Positions 19,815-27,457 of a DNA stretch of 64,000 bases are shown piece by piece. The notes under the pieces are model-generated. The model saw only the letters and a program-made list of their open reading frames with translations, did no database searches and was not told where the DNA came from. Numbering within the stretch: the first letter of the stretch is position 1; the number at the start of each line of letters is the position of its first letter. The stretch is from assembly GCF_011682235.2 (NCBI RefSeq), contig NZ_CP076718.1:4247095-4311094 (forward strand), written 5' to 3'. Made by a program: the position numbers and the translations under genes. Source of the stretch: Rhodocaloribacter litoris (GTDB taxonomy: Bacteria; Bacteroidota; Rhodothermia; Rhodothermales; ISCAR-4553).

Positions 19815-20234
19815 ATGCACCGGCGCGATTTCATCAGGTGGCTGGAACGGCTGGCCGCCGGGGTAGCCTGCGCGGGCGGGGGGCTGCTGGCCGGCTGTGC
19901 GGGCAGCCGCTTCGTCCCGGCCCGGCCGGAGGCGGGGCGACTCGTCATCCGAAAGGACGATCTTGCCGGCCGGGCTGTTGTGCTCGTCGATCTGCCGGGA
20001 ACCGGGCGGCCCATCCTGCTCCGCCGAACGGGGCCGGACGCCTTCGTTGCCGTCTGGACGCGCTGCACCCACCGGGGCTGCCAGGTGGAGCCGGCGGGGG
20101 ACCGGCTCGTCTGCCCCTGCCATGGCAGCGAGTACACCCTCGACGGCAAGGTCGTCAAGTCGCCGGCACGGATGGATCTTCGACGCTTCCGGGTGACGAC
20201 CGACGCCGGGCACGTTTACGTCGAAATGAACTGA
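19815..20234 (+). CDS. Rieske [2Fe-2S] protein, membrane-anchored
   Basis: 139 aa from the ATG at 19815, 2 bp after the previous stop. The N-terminus MHRRDFIRWLERLAAG with a hydrophobic run is a Tat-like RR signal ending in a lipobox-like LAGC. The Rieske cluster motifs are CTHRGC and CPCHGSEY, giving the two Cys/two His ligands. The fold ends DLRRFRVTTDAGHVYVEMN. Length matches small stand-alone Rieske proteins (QcrA-like lipoproteins) rather than cytochrome bc subunits, and no cytochrome b gene is adjacent. It probably passes electrons to or from the di-haem protein encoded just upstream. Confidence 0.9.
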   Translation: MHRRDFIRWLERLAAGVACAGGGLLAGCAGSRFVPARPEAGRLVIRKDDLAGRAVVLVDLPGTGRPILLRRTGPDAFVAVWTRCTHRGCQVEPAGDRLVCPCHGSEYTLDGKVVKSPARMDLRRFRVTTDAGHVYVEMN

Positions 20235-20238
20235 AACC

Positions 20239-21429
20239 ATGCCTATCGCTATGCGACACGTGCTTTTGCTCTGGCTCTTGGGCCTGTTGCCTGCCTGTGC
20301 GGCCCGGGCCCAGGTAGACACGACGACCGTGCAGGACGCGCTCTATGACCGCCCGTTCATCGGGGCGATGGCGCAGACCGCCATCGGCGGATACCTCGAA
20401 GGCAACACGAACTACTTCTCCGAAGACGGTATCGCCGAAGGCTTCTCGATGGAGGTGCGCCGCTTCAACGTGTTCCTCTTTTCCGCCATCAGCGAGCGCG
20501 TCCGGCTCATCTCCGAGCTGGAGTTCGAGCACGGGACAGAGGAGATCAACCTGGAGACGGCCCTGCTCGACTTCCGGATCGGCACCGGGCTGGTGTTGCG
20601 GGGTGGGATTCTGTTGCCGCCCATCGGCGCCTTCAACCAGAACCACGATGCGCCGCTCTGGGAGTTCGTCGACCGCCCGCTCGTCTCCACCGAAATCATT
20701 CCGGCGACGCTCTCGGAGCCCGGCTTCGGGGTCTATGGCAAGCTCTTCCGGGGGGCGCTGGCTTTCACCTACGACGTGTACCTGACCAACGGTCTGGGCG
20801 ACGGGGTGTTGCTCAACGGGGAGGGGCGCACGCATCTGCCGAGCGGGAAGCGGGAGGATCTTTTCGCGGAAGACAACAACGGCTCGCCCGCGCTTTCCGG
20901 GCGGCTGGCCGTGCGGGACTACCGGCTGGGAGAGGTGGGCCTCTCGTACTATGGCGGCGTCTACAACACCTACCGGCGGGACGGCGAGGCGATCGACGTG
21001 CGGCGTCGCCTGCACCTGGTCGCCGTCGACCTCGACGGTGAGGTGGGGCCGGTGGCCCTGCGCGGCGAGGTGGCCTGGGCTTTCGTCGACGTGCCCGCAG
21101 CGCTCCGTGAGTTTGCCGGTCACCGGCAGTGGGGCGGTTACCTCGACGTGGTCGTACCCGTGGGCCGGTGGCCCGTGCTCGGCTACGAAGATGCGGTCTT
21201 CAACGCCAACCTCCGGCTCGAACGGGTCGACTTCAACGTGGGCACCTTCGCTTCCACCGGGGCGAAGATCCATGACGAGGTCGAGGCGATCGTGCTCGGG
21301 CTGAGCTTCCGCCCGACGCCGGAGACGGTCTTCCGGGCGAATTACCGCTACCGGTGGGAGCGTGACCGGCTGGGCAATCCCGCCGTGCGCACCGCCGGGT
21401 TTCAGTTCGGCCTGGCCACGTATTTTTGA
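20239..21429 (+). CDS. Outer-membrane beta-barrel (porin-like) protein
   Basis: 396 aa. Signal peptide MRHVLLLWLLGLLPACAARA follows a short MPIA lead; a second ATG at 20251 would also serve. The mature part has alternating amphipathic strands (FSMEVRRFNVFLFSAISERVRLISELEFEHG, LVLRGGILLPPIGAFNQNHD, ETVFRANYRYRWERDRLG) and ends in the aromatic FQFGLATYF typical of barrel C-termini. It resembles porins co-encoded with cytochromes in Rhodothermota. It starts 4 bp after the Rieske stop, so the three genes form one operon: surface barrel, di-haem protein and Rieske. A conduit or substrate-entry role is possible but unproven. Confidence 0.82.
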   Translation: MPIAMRHVLLLWLLGLLPACAARAQVDTTTVQDALYDRPFIGAMAQTAIGGYLEGNTNYFSEDGIAEGFSMEVRRFNVFLFSAISERVRLISELEFEHGTEEINLETALLDFRIGTGLVLRGGILLPPIGAFNQNHDAPLWEFVDRPLVSTEIIPATLSEPGFGVYGKLFRGALAFTYDVYLTNGLGDGVLLNGEGRTHLPSGKREDLFAEDNNGSPALSGRLAVRDYRLGEVGLSYYGGVYNTYRRDGEAIDVRRRLHLVAVDLDGEVGPVALRGEVAWAFVDVPAALREFAGHRQWGGYLDVVVPVGRWPVLGYEDAVFNANLRLERVDFNVGTFASTGAKIHDEVEAIVLGLSFRPTPETVFRANYRYRWERDRLGNPAVRTAGFQFGLATYF

Positions 21430-21481
21430 GGGGGCCGGTGCCGCCATGCCGGCGGGCGGCGCTTTCGGAAGGCCGGGCCGG

Positions 21482-21769
21482 TCACGCCGGTTCGGTGCCT
21501 TCACAGGACCAGCCGTCGACCACCCCGAGGACGATGACGTTGGCCGGGGTGGGAGCGGCCATGAGCTGTTCGACGACGGCGCCTTCGCGGGCCACCAGCA
21601 CATAGTCGCCGATGCCGGCTCCGTAGCCGGGGTCCAGGGCCAGCTGGTCCTTGATGCCCTTCAGCCGTCCCGCCAGGTCGACCGGGTGAACGATCAGCAG
21701 CTTGCTCGGGCGAAACCGTTCGTCCTTGCGGGTCGCCACGACGGTGCCGGTCACTTTGCACAGGTACAT
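21482..21769 (-). CDS. EutN/CcmL-family microcompartment vertex protein (BMC-P)
   Basis: 95 aa from the ATG at 21769. The whole protein is one BMC-P domain: MYLCKVTGTVVATRKDERF at the start, LLIVHPVDL, then DPGYGAGIGDYVLVAREGAVVEQLM and ANVIVLGVVDGW. The family forms pentamers that cap the corners of bacterial microcompartments and carboxysomes. No BMC-H hexamer gene or encapsulated enzyme is in the window; the divergent C39/ATP-grasp/GCS2 operon starts 180 bp away. Either the shell genes lie elsewhere or this is one of the stand-alone EutN-like proteins with another role. Confidence 0.85.
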   Translation of the reverse strand: MYLCKVTGTVVATRKDERFRPSKLLIVHPVDLAGRLKGIKDQLALDPGYGAGIGDYVLVAREGAVVEQLMAAPTPANVIVLGVVDGWSCEGTEPA

Positions 21770-21949
21770 AAGGCGGCTGCTCTCGGAAGTGGAGGGTCCG
21801 GAGACAAGATAAGGCGGCAAAAAATCCGGTGCTGCGGAGGAACTTCGGACGGGGTCCGAGATTGATGCGGCGGACGGCGGGCCCGGCCTCCCGCCCGCCG
21901 CCGGCCGGACCGGGGAGGCCGCCCTTCCCTGCGGTGTGAGCCGTCGCTC

Positions 21950-22654
21950 ATGCTCGACGTCAGAATCCTCGAACAGCCGGACGACGTGACCTGCGGGCCG
22001 ACCAGCCTGCATGCCGTCTACACCTATTTCGGTGTGCACCGGGAGCTCCAGGAGGTCATCCGCTCGGTCAACTACCTCGAAGAAGGCGGTACGCTGGCCG
22101 TCTACCTCGGCCTCGACGCCCTGCGACACGGCTTCACGGCCGACATCCATTCCTACAACCTCAAAATCCTCGATCCCAGCTGGGCGTCCCTGCCCCGCGC
22201 GGCGCTCGTGCAGAAGCTCCGGGACCAGCTCCGCTACAAGCACGGCAAGAAATTCACCGCCGCCACCGAGGCCTACATCGCCTTCCTCGAGGCCGGCGGC
22301 AACCTGCTCTTCGACGACCTGACGCCCGAACTGCTCCGGAGCTACTTCGACCACCGCCTGCCCATCCTGGCCGGTCTCAGCGCCACGTACCTGTACAACT
22401 GCCCGCGCGAGTATACCAGCGAGAAGAAACGCACCGTCTACGACGACCTCCGGGGTGAGCCCGTGGGGCATTTCGTGGTGCTCTGCGGCATGGAAGGGGA
22501 GTCCGTCATCGTGGCCGATCCGTACACCCGCAACCCGATCTCGGGCCAGAATTACTACAAGGTGGAGATGAACCGGCTCCTGAACGCCATCATGCTCGGG
22601 GTGGTCACCTACGACGCGAACCTGTTGATCATCTCGCCCGATACGATTGCATGA
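21950..22654 (+). CDS. C39-like cysteine peptidase
   Basis: 234 aa, no signal peptide and no membrane segment, so cytosolic. Papain-like C39 signature: ILEQPDDVTCGPTSLHAVY with Gln9 and nucleophile Cys15, His in GEPVGHFVVLCGM, and Asp in SVIVADPYTRNP. Members usually cleave double-glycine leader peptides as domains of ABC exporters, but this one is free-standing and close to the peptidase_C39_2 type. The stop overlaps the next start (ATGA), so it is translationally coupled to the RimK-like ligase. Context suggests that it trims or releases a peptide built or modified by the two ligases. Confidence 0.85.
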   Translation: MLDVRILEQPDDVTCGPTSLHAVYTYFGVHRELQEVIRSVNYLEEGGTLAVYLGLDALRHGFTADIHSYNLKILDPSWASLPRAALVQKLRDQLRYKHGKKFTAATEAYIAFLEAGGNLLFDDLTPELLRSYFDHRLPILAGLSATYLYNCPREYTSEKKRTVYDDLRGEPVGHFVVLCGMEGESVIVADPYTRNPISGQNYYKVEMNRLLNAIMLGVVTYDANLLIISPDTIA

Positions 22655-24150
22655 AGAAGCTCATCGTCGTCAACAACCCCCGGGACTGGACGCTGGACGT
22701 GCCGGGGGTGGAGGTGGTGGCCTCCCGGCAGTACCTGACCGACCCGGGCTTTGCCGCCCAGCGGAACGTGCGCGTGTTCAACCTCTGCCGCGACTATAGC
22801 TACCAGTCGAAAGGCTATTACGTCTCGCTCCTGGCCGAGGCCCGCGGGCACAAGGTGATCCCGAGCGTGCGAACCATCCAGGACCTGAAGAACCCGGTCG
22901 TGGTCCGGATCGAGTCCGAAGAGCTGGACGACCTCATCCAGAAGAGCCTGAAACACCTGCGCTCGGACGGGTTCGTCCTGAGCATCTACTTCGGGAAGAA
23001 CGTGGCCCGGCAGTACGACCGGCTCAGCCGGGAGCTCTACAAGCTGTTTCAGGCGCCCCTGCTCCGGGCCCGCTTCACCTACCACCAGGGCATGAAGAAG
23101 TGGCTCCTGCAGAGCATCCGGGCCATCGATCAGAAGGACATCCCGGCCCATCACCTCGACTTCGTCCGGGAGGCCGCCCGCGCCTATTTCGCGCGGAAAC
23201 GCTACGACGGGGCCCGGGCACCTTCGTACCTCTACGACCTGGCGATCCTCGTCAACCCCGACGAGCCGGCCCCGCCGTCGAACGCCCGTGCCCTGCAGCG
23301 CTTCGTCGAGGCGGCCGAAGCGCTGGGCTTCTACGTCGAGTTCATCACCCGGGAGGATTACAGCCGCCTGGCCGAGTTCGACGCCCTCTTCATCCGTGAG
23401 ACGACGTCCGTCAATCACCACACCTACCGCTTCGCCAGCCGGGCGCAGTCCGAAGGGATGGCCGTCATCGACAGCCCGGACGCCATCCTGCGCTGCAACA
23501 ACAAGGTGTACCTGGCCGAGCTGTTCCAGACGGCCCGCCTGCCCGTGCCGAAGACCCTCGTGGTGCATGCGGATAACCGCAAGACCGTCGCGGGGGCGCT
23601 GGGGCTGCCGTGCGTGCTCAAGCTGCCGGACTCGTCCTTCTCGCGCGGGGTGGTCAAGGTCAAGACGCCGGAGGAGCTCCGCACCGAACTCGACCGCATG
23701 CTGGAGGAATCCGAGCTGGTCATCGCGCAGGCCTTCACGCCGACCGACTTCGACTGGCGCATCGGCATCCTCGACGGCCGCCCACTCTACGCCTGCAAAT
23801 ACTTTATGGCGAAGGGGCACTGGCAGATCTACAACTGGAGCGGGCGGAAGGCTGACGTCGAAGGTGGGGCCGAGACGGTGCCCGTCGAGCAGGCACCGCC
23901 GGCCGTGGTGGAGGCGGCCCTGCGCGCCGCCCGCCTCATCGGCGACGGCCTCTTCGGTGTGGACGTGAAGGAGGTCGACGGCCGCCCGCTGCTGATCGAG
24001 GTCAACGAGAATCCCAACATCGACGCGGGGGTGGAGGACGCCGTGCTGAAGGAGGAGCTCTACACCCGTATCATCCAGGCCCTCAAAATCCGCATCGAAA
24101 ACCGACTGGGCATCTCTCGTGTCAACACGTCCCCGCTACGACCTCTTTGA
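22651..24150 (+). CDS. RimK-like ATP-grasp ligase with N-terminal RLAN domain
   Basis: 499 aa. Residues 1-150 match the RimK-like ATP-grasp N-terminal (RLAN) region (VFNLCRDYSYQSKGYYVSLLAEARGHKVIPSVRTIQDL). Residues about 190-480 are the ATP-grasp ligase: PVPKTLVVHADNRK, CVLKLPDSSFSRGVVKV, IAQAFTPTDFDWRIGILDG, and the Mg-binding LLIEVNENPNIDAGVED. RimK adds glutamate residues to ribosomal protein S6; relatives make gamma-glutamyl or other peptide bonds. Four bp overlap with the peptidase gene and 32 bp with the GCS2 gene imply tight co-expression. Substrate unknown. Confidence 0.9.
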   Translation: MKKLIVVNNPRDWTLDVPGVEVVASRQYLTDPGFAAQRNVRVFNLCRDYSYQSKGYYVSLLAEARGHKVIPSVRTIQDLKNPVVVRIESEELDDLIQKSLKHLRSDGFVLSIYFGKNVARQYDRLSRELYKLFQAPLLRARFTYHQGMKKWLLQSIRAIDQKDIPAHHLDFVREAARAYFARKRYDGARAPSYLYDLAILVNPDEPAPPSNARALQRFVEAAEALGFYVEFITREDYSRLAEFDALFIRETTSVNHHTYRFASRAQSEGMAVIDSPDAILRCNNKVYLAELFQTARLPVPKTLVVHADNRKTVAGALGLPCVLKLPDSSFSRGVVKVKTPEELRTELDRMLEESELVIAQAFTPTDFDWRIGILDGRPLYACKYFMAKGHWQIYNWSGRKADVEGGAETVPVEQAPPAVVEAALRAARLIGDGLFGVDVKEVDGRPLLIEVNENPNIDAGVEDAVLKEELYTRIIQALKIRIENRLGISRVNTSPLRPL

Positions 24151-25354
24151 GGTCTTTGGCGTCGAACTCGAATACATGATCGTGGACCGGGCGACGCTGG
24201 CCGTCCGTCCCCTGGCCGACGTACTCATCCACGAAAAGACGGGGCAATACGTCTCCGACGTAGACAACGGCTCCGTGGCGTGGTCGAACGAACTGGTCAA
24301 CCACGTCCTCGAGCTGAAGACGAACGGCCCGGTGCCGTCGCTCGACGGGCTGGCAACCCTGTTTCACGCGAATGTGGTGGAGATCAACGACCGCCTGCGC
24401 CGGCACGAGGCGATGCTGCTGCCCTCGGGCGCGCACCCGCTCATGGATCCGCGTACCGAGACGCACCTCTGGCCGCACGAGTACAACGAAGTCTACAGCC
24501 TCTACAACCGTCTCTTCGACTGCCGGGGACACGGGTGGGCCAACCTGCAGAGCACCCACCTGAATCTGCCGTTTCGAGACGAAGACGGCTTCGGGCGGCT
24601 GCATGCCGCCATCCGGGTCCTGCTGCCCGTCATCCCGGCCCTGAGCGCCAGCACGCCCCTGCTCGACGGGGCGCTCACGGGCTTTGCCGACAGCCGCCTC
24701 GAGACGTACCGGCACAACCAGGACCGCTTTCCCGTCATCACGGGCCGGGTCATCCCCGAGGCCGTCTTCACAAAGGCGGACTACCACCGGCGCATCTACC
24801 GGCCCATCAACGAGGCGCTCCGGCCCTTCGACACCGACGGCGTGCTCGACCATACCTTCGTCAACTCGCGCGGTGCCATCGCCCGCTTTGACCGGAACGC
24901 CATTGAGATCCGGATCATCGACCTGCAGGAGTGCCCGGCCGCTGATCTGGCGATCCTCGCCGGCGTCGTGGCGGTGCTCCGGGCACTGGTGGCGGAGCGG
25001 TGGGTCCCGCTCGCGGCCCTGAAGGCCTGGCACGAGGACGCGCTGGCCGCCATCTTCCTCGACGTCGTTCGCCACGCCGAGCGGGCCGTGATCACGGACC
25101 AGGCCTACCTGCGGCTCTTCGGCCTGGAGGCGTCCGAAGCCACGGCGGGGGCGCTCTGGCAGCACCTTGTCGCGGCGATACAGGACGACCTGTCCGGCGA
25201 CGCCGCCGGGGTGCTGGAACACCTCCTCACGCAGGGGTCGCTTGCTACCCGCATTACCCGCCGCCTGGGCGATGACATCACGCCTGGCCGCATCCGGGAG
25301 GTGTACCACGAACTGGCCGTCTGCCTGGCCGAGAACCGGCTGTTTGAAGCCTGA
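24119..25354 (+). CDS. Glutamate-cysteine ligase-like protein (GCS2 family)
   Basis: 411 aa from a GTG at 24119, within the end of the previous gene. GCS2/YbdK features: LFEVFGVELEYMIVDRATL (metal-binding Glu pair), NELVNHVLELKTNGP, ATLFHANVVEINDRL, and FVNSRGAIARFDRNAIEIRIIDLQECPAADL. GCS2 enzymes form a gamma-glutamyl bond to an amine such as Cys. With the RimK-type ligase and C39 peptidase in one operon it probably contributes one step of a peptide-like metabolite or protein tag. The true substrates are not readable. A hairpin follows 66 bp after the stop. Confidence 0.88.
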   Translation: MSTRPRYDLFEVFGVELEYMIVDRATLAVRPLADVLIHEKTGQYVSDVDNGSVAWSNELVNHVLELKTNGPVPSLDGLATLFHANVVEINDRLRRHEAMLLPSGAHPLMDPRTETHLWPHEYNEVYSLYNRLFDCRGHGWANLQSTHLNLPFRDEDGFGRLHAAIRVLLPVIPALSASTPLLDGALTGFADSRLETYRHNQDRFPVITGRVIPEAVFTKADYHRRIYRPINEALRPFDTDGVLDHTFVNSRGAIARFDRNAIEIRIIDLQECPAADLAILAGVVAVLRALVAERWVPLAALKAWHEDALAAIFLDVVRHAERAVITDQAYLRLFGLEASEATAGALWQHLVAAIQDDLSGDAAGVLEHLLTQGSLATRITRRLGDDITPGRIREVYHELAVCLAENRLFEA

Positions 25355-25420
25355 ACCCTCCGCTGCGGGCGGGTTATGCAGGAACCCGGAACGCTACGTG
25401 GTTCGTGCCTTTGCTCCGTT

Positions 25421-25439
25421 CCCGCACACCGGGTGCGGG
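25421..25439. terminator. GC hairpin after the ligase operon
   Basis: CCCGCAC (25421-25427), 5 nt loop, GTGCGGG (25433-25439). There is no T-tract on the plus strand, so it is at best a weak or factor-assisted terminator. Confidence 0.35.
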
Positions 25440-25444
25440 GTGCG

Positions 25445-25486
25445 TCCGTGGATCCGCCATCCGTATCCGTGGATCCGCCATCCGTA
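25445..25486 (+). repeat. Perfect 21 bp tandem duplication
   Basis: 25445-25465 is repeated exactly at 25466-25486; the unit contains GGATCCGCCATCC. It lies in the 348 bp non-coding gap between the ligase operon and the amino-acid carrier gene. Confidence 0.9.
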
Positions 25487-25575
25487 CAGGTCCATTCCGT
25501 GTGCCGTCGCCGGGTTGGAAGGGGGGCCTCCTCACCCGTTCAACGACCGGCGCACCCGGGGGGAGCGGAAATCGG

Positions 25576-25607
25576 TTTGCCCCGCTGTTACGGGGGCGTT
25601 ATATTTT
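25576..25607 (+). promoter_or_regulatory. Promoter of the Bacteroidota -33/-7 type
   Basis: TTTG (25576-25579), 20 bp spacer, TATATTTT (25600-25607) matches TTTG-N19-21-TAnnTTTG at all but the last base. The carrier gene starts 95 bp downstream. Confidence 0.6.
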
Positions 25608-25702
25608 CGCGCGGCGTACGTCGCAGTGACGGGAGCGCGGGATCCCCGTGCCCCCTGATTTTTTGCTCCCGGTCGCTCCAACCTTCACGTTGATCCGGAT
25701 TC

Positions 25703-27457
25703 ATGGAAACGCTGTCTTCCTTCATCGAACTGGCGAATGGCCTGCTGTCTCCCGTCCTGGTGACCGGGCTGCTGGGTGCGGGGTTGTTCCTGACGTTACG
25801 ACTCGGCTTCATCCAGATCCGCCGGCTCGGGCATGGTTTTGCCGTCACCTCGGGCAAGTACGACGATCCGAATGAGCCGGGCGACGTGTCCCATTTCCAG
25901 GCCCTGACGACGGCGCTCTCGGCCACGGTCGGGATTGGCAACATCGCGGGGGTGGCGCTGGCGATCCACTGGGGTGGGCCGGGAGCGCTCTTCTGGATGT
26001 GGATCACGGCGCTGCTCGGCATGGCGACCAAGTACAGCGAGGTCACGCTTGCGCAGCACTACCGGGAGACGATCGAGGACGGAAAGGCCTGGGAAGGCTC
26101 CGTCGCCGGCGGGCCCATGTACTACATCGAGAAGGGGATCAAGGAACGGTACGGGTGGAACTGGAAGCCTGTGGCCGTCTTTTTCGCCTTCATGCTGATG
26201 ATGACCTCGTTCATGACGGGCAACGCGATCCAGGCCAACACCATCGCCACGGAGATGGCGTCCAACTTCGGCCTGGCCAAGTGGATCACGGGCCTGTGCA
26301 CGGCGACCATCGTCGGGGTGGTCATCATCGGCGGGATCCGGCGGATCGGGGCCGTCACCGGCGTGCTGGCTCCGCTCATGGCGGCGCTCTACGTCACCGG
26401 CGGGCTCCTGATCCTGCTCCTCAACGCGGGGGACGTGCCGGGAACCCTGGCGACGATCATCACCGAGGCCTTCAACCCGTCGGCCGGGGTGGCCGGCACC
26501 GGCATCGGCCTTTTCCTGACGACGATGACCTACGGCGTGCAGCGCGGCCTCTTCTCGAACGAGGCGGGGCAGGGATCGGCTCCCATCGCCCACTCGGCCG
26601 CCAAGACGGACGAGCCCGTCTCGGAGGGGGTTGTGGCCCTGCTCGAACCCTTCATCGACACCATCATCATCTGCACCATCACCGGCCTGGTGATCGTCTC
26701 CACCGGGGTCTTCGACGACAAGGTGCCGACGACCATCTCCCTGGGCGACAACAACGTGTCGTATGTACAGGTCGACGACCGGGGTAACATCACGAGCACG
26801 TCTTCGCCGCGGGAGCTGGCCGTGCAGAACGGCATGCCGGTGGTGACCTCGGGCACCGATCCCCGCCTGGCCTATTTCGACGTGCCGGTGGATACCCTCT
26901 TCATCGACGCTGCGCAGACGCAACCCTTCACGGGCACGATCTTTCCCGGCCGGGCACAGGCCGTAGGGTCCGACGGCACCACGTACGCCGTGCTCTACGG
27001 CAATGCCGTGCGCAACAGCGCCCCGCTCACCTCGCTCGGCTTCCAGCGCGGGCTCGAACCCCTCGGCCTCTCGGAGCTGGGACGCTGGATCGTGCTGCTG
27101 TGCGTGTTCCTCTTTGCCATCTCGACGGCCATCTCCTGGAGCTATTACGGTGACCGCTGCGCCAACTACCTCTGGGGCAAGAAAGCCATCCTGCCCTACA
27201 AGATGGTCTTTCTCGTCATGCACTTCCTCGGGGCCGTCGTGGCGGTGACGACGATCTGGGACCTGGGGGATGTGGCCCTCTCGCTCGTGACGCTGCCGAA
27301 CGTGATCACGCTCGTCCTGCTCTCGGGGCTGCTCAAGCGCGTCACCGACAGCTACTTCCAGCGCAAGCCGTGGCTGGAGAACTACGAGGTCCACCGGCGG
27401 ATCGTGGAGGAGAAGAAGCAGAAAGCCGCCGCGCGCAAGCAGCACGAGCGCATCTAG
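25703..27457 (+). CDS. Sodium:alanine/glycine symporter (AGCS family) with extra loop domain
   Basis: 584 aa, about 11 transmembrane helices. Family motifs are FQALTTALSATVGIGNIAGVALAIHWGGPGALFWMW, GPMYYIEKG, and YGVQRGLFSNEAGQGSAPIAHSAAKT. The protein co-transports Na+ with small neutral amino acids at the inner membrane. It is about 100 residues longer than the usual 450-480 aa: residues about 338-442, between the ITGLVIVSTGVF helix and LTSLGFQRGLEPL, form a hydrophilic segment rich in Asp, Thr and Gly (VPTTISLGDNNVSYVQVDD to AVGSDGTTYAVLYGNAV). This replaces a short loop. It ends in a charged tail (RRIVEEKKQKAAARKQHERI). It is probably transcribed from the promoter at 25576. Confidence 0.9.
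   Translation: METLSSFIELANGLLSPVLVTGLLGAGLFLTLRLGFIQIRRLGHGFAVTSGKYDDPNEPGDVSHFQALTTALSATVGIGNIAGVALAIHWGGPGALFWMWITALLGMATKYSEVTLAQHYRETIEDGKAWEGSVAGGPMYYIEKGIKERYGWNWKPVAVFFAFMLMMTSFMTGNAIQANTIATEMASNFGLAKWITGLCTATIVGVVIIGGIRRIGAVTGVLAPLMAALYVTGGLLILLLNAGDVPGTLATIITEAFNPSAGVAGTGIGLFLTTMTYGVQRGLFSNEAGQGSAPIAHSAAKTDEPVSEGVVALLEPFIDTIIICTITGLVIVSTGVFDDKVPTTISLGDNNVSYVQVDDRGNITSTSSPRELAVQNGMPVVTSGTDPRLAYFDVPVDTLFIDAAQTQPFTGTIFPGRAQAVGSDGTTYAVLYGNAVRNSAPLTSLGFQRGLEPLGLSELGRWIVLLCVFLFAISTAISWSYYGDRCANYLWGKKAILPYKMVFLVMHFLGAVVAVTTIWDLGDVALSLVTLPNVITLVLLSGLLKRVTDSYFQRKPWLENYEVHRRIVEEKKQKAAARKQHERI

What the first reader, a model, noticed from the sequence alone, without database searches (positions are those of the whole stretch)
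21950..25354. C39 peptidase / RimK-like ligase / GCS2 ligase cassette
Three overlapping genes (4 bp and 32 bp overlaps) encode a free cysteine peptidase of the C39 fold and two distinct amide-bond ligases. Such amidoligase neighbourhoods have been predicted in comparative genomics to make or edit peptide-like metabolites or tags, but the product is unknown. No precursor peptide, transporter or tailoring enzyme is adjacent.
Basis: partly seen in the sequence, partly recalled or inferred. Interest (0 to 1): 0.65.

Follow-up and report, generated by a model that had tools for sequence, protein, structure and literature searches.

The report
Conserved capped-peptide synthesis gene cassette
Three overlapping genes found together in many distant bacteria look like a small assembly line that joins amino acids into a short glutamate-capped peptide and can cut it again; the product is unknown, but the gene set is real, widespread and ready to be tested.

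Summary
In detail: coordinates, overlaps (4 and 32 bp) and families check out. The genes encode a free C39-type cysteine peptidase with intact active site, an RLAN-RimK ATP-grasp ligase and a GCS2 carboxylate-amine ligase. In 247 evenly drawn genomes of the phylum this GCS2 occurs in 21, always beside RLAN-RimK; the C39 occurs in 19, all among those 21. The same order recurs in eight phyla.

(1) The usual cassette has a fourth gene, an FGase-family (N-formylglutamate amidohydrolase-like) hydrolase after GCS2; this genome lacks it. (2) RLAN-RimK loci without GCS2 nearly always carry a GNAT acyltransferase, and GCS2 loci never do, so the two look like interchangeable N-acylating ('capping') modules. 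(3) RLAN-RimK plus GCS2 is the near-invariant core; C39 and FGase are the parts lost.

Best reading: a soluble pathway for a short gamma-glutamyl-capped peptide, edited or recycled by C39 and FGase. It is not a RiPP by any conserved precursor and not a substitute for bacillithiol (BshC is in all 21 cassette genomes). Protein modification is the main rival.

The parts
21950..22654 (+). C39-type (papain-fold) cysteine peptidase/transferase, free-standing; Gln9, Cys15, His174, Asp190 invariant
   Evidence: Pfam; alignment of 25 rows; AlphaFold model pLDDT 84.5; fold matches
22651..24150 (+). RLAN-RimK ATP-grasp amide ligase, whole gene
   Evidence: Pfam; alignment of 29 rows; PDB profile search
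22726..23172 (+). RLAN domain (residues 26-174)
   Evidence: PF14401 170.3 bits
23500..24027 (+). RimK-type ATP-grasp domain (residues 284-459), with invariant Asp438, Glu450 and Asn452
   Evidence: PF08443; invariant columns
24119..25354 (+). GCS2-family carboxylate-amine (glutamate-cysteine ligase-like) ligase, GTG start; invariant Glu16, Glu18, Glu263, Arg265
   Evidence: PF04107; alignment of 28 rows; model pLDDT 92.3; fold matches

Best explanation
A cytosolic operon for a short, N-capped, non-ribosomal peptide. RLAN-RimK makes one ATP-dependent amide bond. GCS2 makes a second, most likely by activating the gamma-carboxylate of glutamate and so putting a gamma-glutamyl cap on an amine. 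This is the same pairing of folds (glutamine-synthetase-like plus ATP-grasp) as in glutathione synthesis. The C39 enzyme attacks an amide of the product through a Cys acyl-enzyme and either hydrolyses it or passes the acyl group on. In most relatives an FGase-type amidohydrolase removes or recycles an acyl-glutamate; this genome does without it. In the sister systems a GNAT domain puts an acyl cap on instead of GCS2. Shown: families, conserved catalytic residues, operon and co-occurrence, the GNAT/GCS2 alternation, near-invariant synthetic core with losable hydrolases. Inferred: small-molecule product, gamma-glutamyl cap, order of steps, roles of C39 and FGase.
For: Linkage: cassette-type GCS2 in 21 of 247 phylum genomes, all 21 beside RLAN-RimK; C39 in 19, all within the 21. 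Tight spacing in the 80 relatives: median gaps 3 bp (n=76), 10 bp (n=79), -4 bp (n=59). Core versus accessory: of 80 loci, GCS2 in 79, C39 in 76, FGase in 59. FGase: in 33 RLAN genomes, 14 have it, every hit at the cassette, 0 of 11 GNAT-type genomes (places compared). GNAT versus GCS2: own GNAT profile in 0 of 102 GCS2 loci and in 12 of 12 GNAT-type loci (the profile was built from 9 of those 12, so only 3 of the 12 are independent hits) and beside 2 of 3 further RLAN loci; Pfam independently finds GNAT in 8 of 9 proteins scanned (the ninth, L042, is the RLAN gene of a locus whose GNAT is in the neighbouring gene). GCS2 model matches YbdK (Z 38.4) and plant glutamate-cysteine ligase (Z 34.6) over 351 and 363 residues. 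C39 model matches C39 peptidases (Z up to 17.0) and, tied with these, the glutathione-acylated phytochelatin-synthase-like Alr0975 (2bu3, Z 16.2). The GNAT of an Azospirillum system scores over the RimI cut-off. No widely conserved small ORF.
Against: No product, substrate or activity is known; nothing here shows gamma-glutamyl chemistry. GCS2 is far from every characterised equivalog (53.7 bits against a cut-off of 176.4 for YbdK, 35.1 against 249 for cyanobacterial GshA). A shared papain fold does not show a shared substrate, and the C39 model's best matches are peptidases. RimI acetylates protein N-termini (recalled), which would also fit a protein target. Exceptions to the GNAT/GCS2 rule: L058 has neither GCS2 nor C39 (no GCS2 in its genome) and only a weaker GNAT hit 1.7 kb away on the other strand; the Pseudomonas plasmid locus L127 has none of the partners nearby.
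Confidence: 0.5

Rival explanations
1. A protein-modification system: RLAN-RimK adds glutamates or other residues to a protein end or side chain, GCS2 (or GNAT) adds a second mark, and the C39 peptidase takes the tag off, as RimK does for ribosomal protein S6 and as ligase/peptidase pairs do in tagging systems.
For: Nearest solved relatives of the ATP-grasp half are S6-glutamate ligases and LysX. The GNAT counterpart is RimI-like. GCS2 model also resembles the Pup ligase PafA and depupylase Dop, but less well (Z 20-21 against 38).
Against: No conserved protein gene beyond the four accompanies the cassette across clades. The GCS2 model is much closer to small-molecule gamma-glutamyl ligases. 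FGase-family enzymes with known activity act on small N-acyl amino acids (recalled).
Confidence: 0.22
2. A low-molecular-weight thiol pathway (glutathione- or phytochelatin-like): GCS2 makes gamma-glutamylcysteine, RLAN-RimK extends it, C39 acts as a phytochelatin-synthase-like transpeptidase.
For: Same fold pairing as GshA plus GshB; C39 model aligns with glutathione-bound Alr0975 (Z 15.2-16.2); GCS2 model aligns with plant glutamate-cysteine ligase (Z 34.6).
Against: BshC, the bacillithiol cysteine-adding enzyme, is in 242 of 247 phylum genomes and in all 21 cassette genomes, so the cassette does not stand in for bacillithiol. No Pfam phytochelatin synthase match at E up to 1. Not a glutathione synthase equivalog (24 bits against 299). 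Cysteine specificity was not tested.
Confidence: 0.1
3. A non-ribosomal natural product line of the closthioamide or butirosin kind, with the papain-fold enzyme as an amide-forming acyltransferase.
For: C39 model matches CtaG of closthioamide biosynthesis (Foldseek E 3e-4; Z 11.4), called a peptidyl transferase in a pathway with an ATP-grasp protein (PMC6772006, passages); BtrH_N is described as close to C39 (PMC10318531, passages).
Against: No carrier protein, exporter or tailoring enzyme is conserved next to the cassette. CtaG ranks well below the C39 peptidases. Presence across eight phyla including rumen Fibrobacter suggests a housekeeping or stress role rather than an antibiotic (inference).
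Confidence: 0.1
4. A RiPP (graspetide-like) cluster whose precursor lies next to the genes and is cut by the C39 peptidase.
For: ATP-grasp plus C39 is a familiar RiPP pair; double-glycine C39 peptidase/transporters head the table of neighbours of graspetide loci (PMC8939145, passages).
Against: 1046 small ORFs (20-100 aa) within 700 bp of the 76 trio-bearing loci were compared: of the 12 largest families shown, the largest held 12 loci (all Pontibacter by the titles) and none spread beyond Pontibacter/Rufibacter/Adhaeribacter relatives or Fibrobacter. Gaps leave little room inside the cassette. The C39 here is not fused to a transporter.
Confidence: 0.03

Closest known systems
RLAN-RimK with GNAT and DUF3335 (C39-like) proteins, e.g. 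Azospirillum L128 and genomes G044, G002, G050; the DUF3335-GNAT fusion is noted in PMC10318531 (passages), which cites Iyer et al. 2009 (not held; not read)
   Same: Same RLAN-RimK ligase and a papain-fold C39-like partner next to it
   Different: N-acyl step is a GNAT domain; no GCS2 and no FGase; C39 is the DUF3335 type fused to GNAT
Legionella adelaidensis RimK - glutamate-cysteine ligase family - N-formylglutamate amidohydrolase cluster (annotated record)
   Same: Same RLAN-RimK and GCS2 in the same order; GCS2 is 41% identical to the window's
   Different: Has FGase; a C39 gene is not seen, but the RimK gene starts 41 bases from the record's start, so its absence says nothing
Glutathione biosynthesis (GshA plus GshB)
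   Same: A GCS-fold ligase paired with an ATP-grasp ligase; GCS2 model superposes on plant glutamate-cysteine ligase
   Different: Far below the cut-offs of the GshA, YbdK and glutathione synthase models; extra RLAN domain and C39/FGase partners
N-acetylglutaminylglutamine amide (NAGGN) synthesis: GNAT plus ATP-grasp (recalled; NCBIfam TIGR03103 name seen)
   Same: GNAT-capped dipeptide made with an ATP-grasp enzyme and accompanied by a peptidase gene (recalled); the logic of the GNAT-RLAN-RimK fusions is alike
   Different: RLAN-RimK scores 16.1 bits against a cut-off of 569; GCS2 instead of GNAT here; no amidotransferase gene in the cassette
Closthioamide CtaD/CtaG and butirosin BtrH (PMC6772006 and PMC10318531, passages only)
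   Same: Papain-fold enzyme used for acyl or peptidyl transfer alongside ATP-grasp amide chemistry
   Different: Those work on carrier-bound substrates; no carrier protein is conserved here

Membership tests
RLAN-RimK ATP-grasp ligases (PF14401 + PF08443) | Both domains over their gathering scores in one chain | tested here: met
   170.3 (cut-off 25) and 25.5 (cut-off 21)
Ribosomal protein S6 glutamate ligase RimK | Over the NCBIfam equivalog cut-off (331) | tested here: not met
   22 bits
GCS2 superfamily (PF04107) | Over gathering score 21 and GCS fold | tested here: met
   88.8 bits; Z 38.4 to YbdK and 34.6 to plant GCL
YbdK / cyanobacterial GshA models | Over TIGR02050 (176.4) or TIGR02048 (249) cut-off | tested here: not met
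   53.7 and 35.1 bits
Gamma-glutamyl ligase | ATP-dependent use of the gamma-carboxylate of L-glutamate | not testable with these tools
   Fold and invariant Glu16/Glu18/Glu263/Arg265 only
C39 peptidases (PF03412/PF13529) | Gathering scores and Gln-Cys-His-Asp active site | tested here: met
   27.5 and 26.2 bits; Q9 C15 H174 D190 invariant in 25 rows
Double-glycine leader peptidases of ABC transporters | Fusion to an ABC transporter | tested here: not met
   234-aa stand-alone protein
Phytochelatin synthase (PF05023) | Sequence match to the family | tested here: not met
   No PF05023 among Pfam matches with E up to 1; only fold similarity
Four-gene cassette C39 / RLAN-RimK / GCS2 / FGase | All four genes in order | tested here: not met
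   Three of four; no FGase in the genome by Pfam PF05013 or own profile. The three-gene form is also in relatives G021 and G008
Graspetide or other RiPP cluster | Conserved precursor gene next to the ligase | tested here: not met
   No small-ORF family spread across clades; a distant precursor was not sought
NAGGN synthetase (TIGR03103) | Over cut-off 569 | tested here: not met
   16.1 bits
Known anti-phage defence proteins (PADLOC) | Match to a PADLOC model | tested here: not met
   0 families at E up to 0.01 for the three proteins and one FGase

The most novel reading that the evidence does not exclude
RLAN-RimK is the constant peptide synthetase of a large, unrecognised family of capped-peptide pathways in which the N-acylating module is swapped between two unrelated enzymes, GNAT (acyl-CoA) and GCS2 (glutamyl phosphate). 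The GCS2 branch, here, makes a gamma-glutamyl-capped peptide that no one has isolated, with a C39 enzyme and an FGase as dedicated decapping or recycling enzymes.
Probability: 0.35. Interest if true: 0.75.

Novelty: new variant of a known kind. Interest (0 to 1): 0.52.

Why it matters
A two-ligase core kept together across eight phyla, with two optional hydrolases and a swappable capping enzyme, points to a real metabolite or modification that is missing from current maps of bacterial chemistry. The GNAT/GCS2 swap makes a sharp prediction (same peptide core, acyl cap versus gamma-glutamyl cap) that a single mass-spectrometry comparison can test. Named carriers such as Pontibacter and Rufibacter strains are candidates for the experiment.

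Tried and rejected
RiPP reading: rejected, no small ORF family spread across clades (my notebook entry says 'no small ORF family crosses genus', which is too strong: some families join near genera such as Rufibacter and Sabulibacter). Thiol replacing bacillithiol: rejected, BshC is in all 21 cassette genomes; a second thiol is not excluded. Defence system: no PADLOC match. Phage-borne: no match to RLAN-RimK in 50,697 phage records. Riboswitch or other RNA in 20200-26500: no Rfam match at E up to 1. Operon with AgcS: a weak promoter-like and terminator-like pattern lies between (25577-25605 and 25580-25595; counts near those of shuffles), and AgcS is absent from all 80 relative loci. Recent foreign origin by composition: GC of the three genes 0.63-0.67 against 0.677 for the window, third-position GC like the neighbours, so not evident; distribution is patchy though (trio in 3 of 60 relatives: G000, G021, G008). 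The number of GCS2/GNAT swaps is not settled: in the tree (51 rows) GNAT fusions need two changes, one GNAT-fusion clade sitting among GCS2-type rows, but that place is not strongly supported (82/90). In the same tree L058 was labelled GCS2-type by default although it has no GCS2, and L131 was labelled solo before one search showed a GNAT beside it. In the structure searches the CtaG and PafA/Dop matches were lower than the C39-peptidase and YbdK matches and were not used for naming.

Literature: Iyer et al. 2009 (10.1039/b917682a, PMC3268129), which I recall as the source of the RLAN domain and of amidoligase neighbourhood predictions, is not held, so what it already says about this cassette is unknown to me. 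Searches that found no paper on the cassette: (open-licence PubMed Central papers only; I read passages of PMC4431377, PMC6772006, PMC8939145 and PMC10318531, and otherwise search listings).

Rows dropped before counts: the 80 loci are the best of 562; L041, L045 and L046 were too short for the tree; 115 rows were thinned to 51; L126 has only a partial C39 but was counted as having it; L065 has a truncated FGase, counted (60 of 80) and not (59 of 80); in 5 of those 59 the FGase lies 1.3-4.7 kb from GCS2.
Full report
Observation. Pfam names them C39 peptidase, RLAN-RimK ATP-grasp and GCS2, each over its cut-off. NCBIfam puts none of them in a characterised equivalog; the best ATP-grasp hits are the RimK/LysX group and the best GCS2 hit is the YbdK group, all far under cut-off. 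The window lies in a complete 4.5 Mb genome. The next gene downstream is an amino-acid symporter (AgcS), contrary to 'no transporter adjacent', but it is not found in any of 80 relative loci.

Is it a unit? A scan of named genomes returned the 80 nearest RLAN-RimK loci of 562 confirmed. 76 of the 80 hold C39, RLAN-RimK and GCS2 in that order on one strand; 58 of these also hold an FGase. Median gaps are 3, 10 and -4 bp. Rows of the tree come from eight phyla: Bacteroidota, Fibrobacterota, Ignavibacteriota, Spirochaetota, Thermodesulfobacteriota, Nitrospirota, Pseudomonadota and Omnitrophota. Because those 80 were picked for closeness, I also searched 247 genomes drawn evenly from the window's phylum: RLAN in 30, cassette-type GCS2 in 21, all among the 30 and all beside RLAN, C39 in 19, all among the 21. 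The two without C39 (G240, G265) keep RLAN-RimK, GCS2 and FGase.

A fourth gene. The commonest further neighbour is an FGase-family protein (PF05013, 78.6 bits in L107), usually starting at the end of GCS2. An annotated Legionella adelaidensis record shows RimK, glutamate-cysteine ligase family and N-formylglutamate amidohydrolase in a row. In 33 RLAN-bearing genomes FGase occurs in 14, always at the cassette and never in the 11 GNAT-type genomes. The window's genome has none, nor do G021 and G008, the other two with the trio among the 60 relatives.

Two ways to cap. RLAN-RimK genes without GCS2 have a GNAT instead: fused in front of RLAN (eight genomes: G005, G038, G111, G137, G188, G202, G227, G258) or fused to a DUF3335 C39-like domain encoded next to RLAN (G044, G002, G050, and Azospirillum L128). 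A GNAT profile built from nine of these loci finds a GNAT in 12 of 12 such loci (3 of them not used in building it) and in 0 of 102 GCS2 loci, the window among them. Of three further loci without GCS2, two have a GNAT next to RLAN (L130, L131) and one, on a Pseudomonas plasmid (L127), has none nearby. L058, a Fibrobacterota draft genome, has neither C39 in its locus nor GCS2 anywhere and only a weaker GNAT hit 1.7 kb off on the other strand; it is an exception to tell. The tree needs two changes to place the GNAT fusions, with one fusion clade among GCS2-type rows, weakly supported.

Active sites and folds. C39: Gln9, Cys15, His174 and Asp190 are invariant in 25 rows. The AlphaFold model (pLDDT 84.5) aligns with C39 peptidases (Z up to 17.0, 2.1 A over 133 residues) and, tied with these, with the phytochelatin-synthase-like Alr0975 carrying a glutathione-derived acyl group (2bu3, Z 16.2, 2.6 A over 155) and pseudomurein endoisopeptidase PeiR (Z 16.2); CtaG lies lower (Z 11.4). 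GCS2: model pLDDT 92.3, Z 38.4 to YbdK (2.7 A over 351) and 34.6 to plant glutamate-cysteine ligase (3.0 A over 363); the paired glutamates of the GxExE motif and the ExR...D motif align with YbdK. RLAN-RimK: profile matches S6-glutamate ligases and LysX in its C-terminal half; the RLAN half matched nothing solved at E up to 1e-5 in that search.

Mechanism. The near-invariant part is the pair of ligases: of 80 loci GCS2 is in 79, C39 in 76 and FGase in 59. I read this as synthesis by the ligases and editing, transfer or recycling by the two hydrolases. Because GCS2 and GNAT replace each other and both enzyme kinds acylate amines (established for the families; recalled), the simplest account is N-capping of a peptide: by a gamma-glutamyl group here, by an acyl group in the GNAT branch. 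The GNAT of the Azospirillum system scores over the RimI cut-off, which fits a peptide alpha-amine as acceptor but would also fit a protein. Confidence in the small-molecule reading is 0.5; that the genes form one functional unit I hold as near certain.

What it is not. It is not a stand-in for bacillithiol: BshC is in 242 of 247 genomes and in all 21 with the cassette. It is not a RiPP cluster by any widely conserved neighbouring precursor. It has no PADLOC match, no phage homologue and no Rfam element nearby.

Novelty. Searches of the held open-licence library found no paper on this gene set. The 2009 survey of amidoligases that probably treats RLAN is not held; PMC10318531 (passages) mentions DUF3335-GNAT fusions and cites it. 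I therefore rate this a new variant of a known kind of predicted peptide-ligase neighbourhood rather than a new category.

Noticed in passing
window 21485-21769 (-): A EutN/CcmL bacterial-microcompartment vertex gene (PF03319, 64.2 bits) sits back to back with the cassette; the genome's only two BMC shell hits lie about 18 kb beyond the window's end (C1:4328812 and 4329277).
   Followed up: partly
window 25703-27457 (+): The AgcS symporter is 584 aa long; its Pfam match spans residues 57-555 for 376 profile positions, so it carries roughly 120 extra residues inside the domain.
   Followed up: no
L041 6276-8989: In G008 (a one-contig genome) both RLAN-RimK and GCS2 are split by frame changes: sequencing error or decay.
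   Followed up: no
L107 12705-13967: An Ignavibacteriales FGase is fused to a C-terminal stretch with weak HD-domain matches (PF13328 20.9 bits, PF01966 17.5, both under cut-off).
   Followed up: no
L079 12461-13960, L092 12863-14215: Four Fibrobacter loci hold an extra gene between GCS2 and FGase (cluster c61) with a phosphatase-like HCTxGxDRTG motif (my reading of the letters) and a lipoprotein-like start.
   Followed up: no
L130 and L129 source records: Records labelled plasmid look chromosomal: Aeromonas caviae pKAM479_3 is 4.94 Mb and the 9 kb Legionella adelaidensis 'plasmid 27' carries fur and dapF.
   Followed up: no
L127 1-5918: On a Pseudomonas aeruginosa plasmid record the lone RLAN-RimK lies near ggt (gamma-glutamyltransferase), asparaginase and a glutamate/aspartate ABC transporter.
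   Followed up: no
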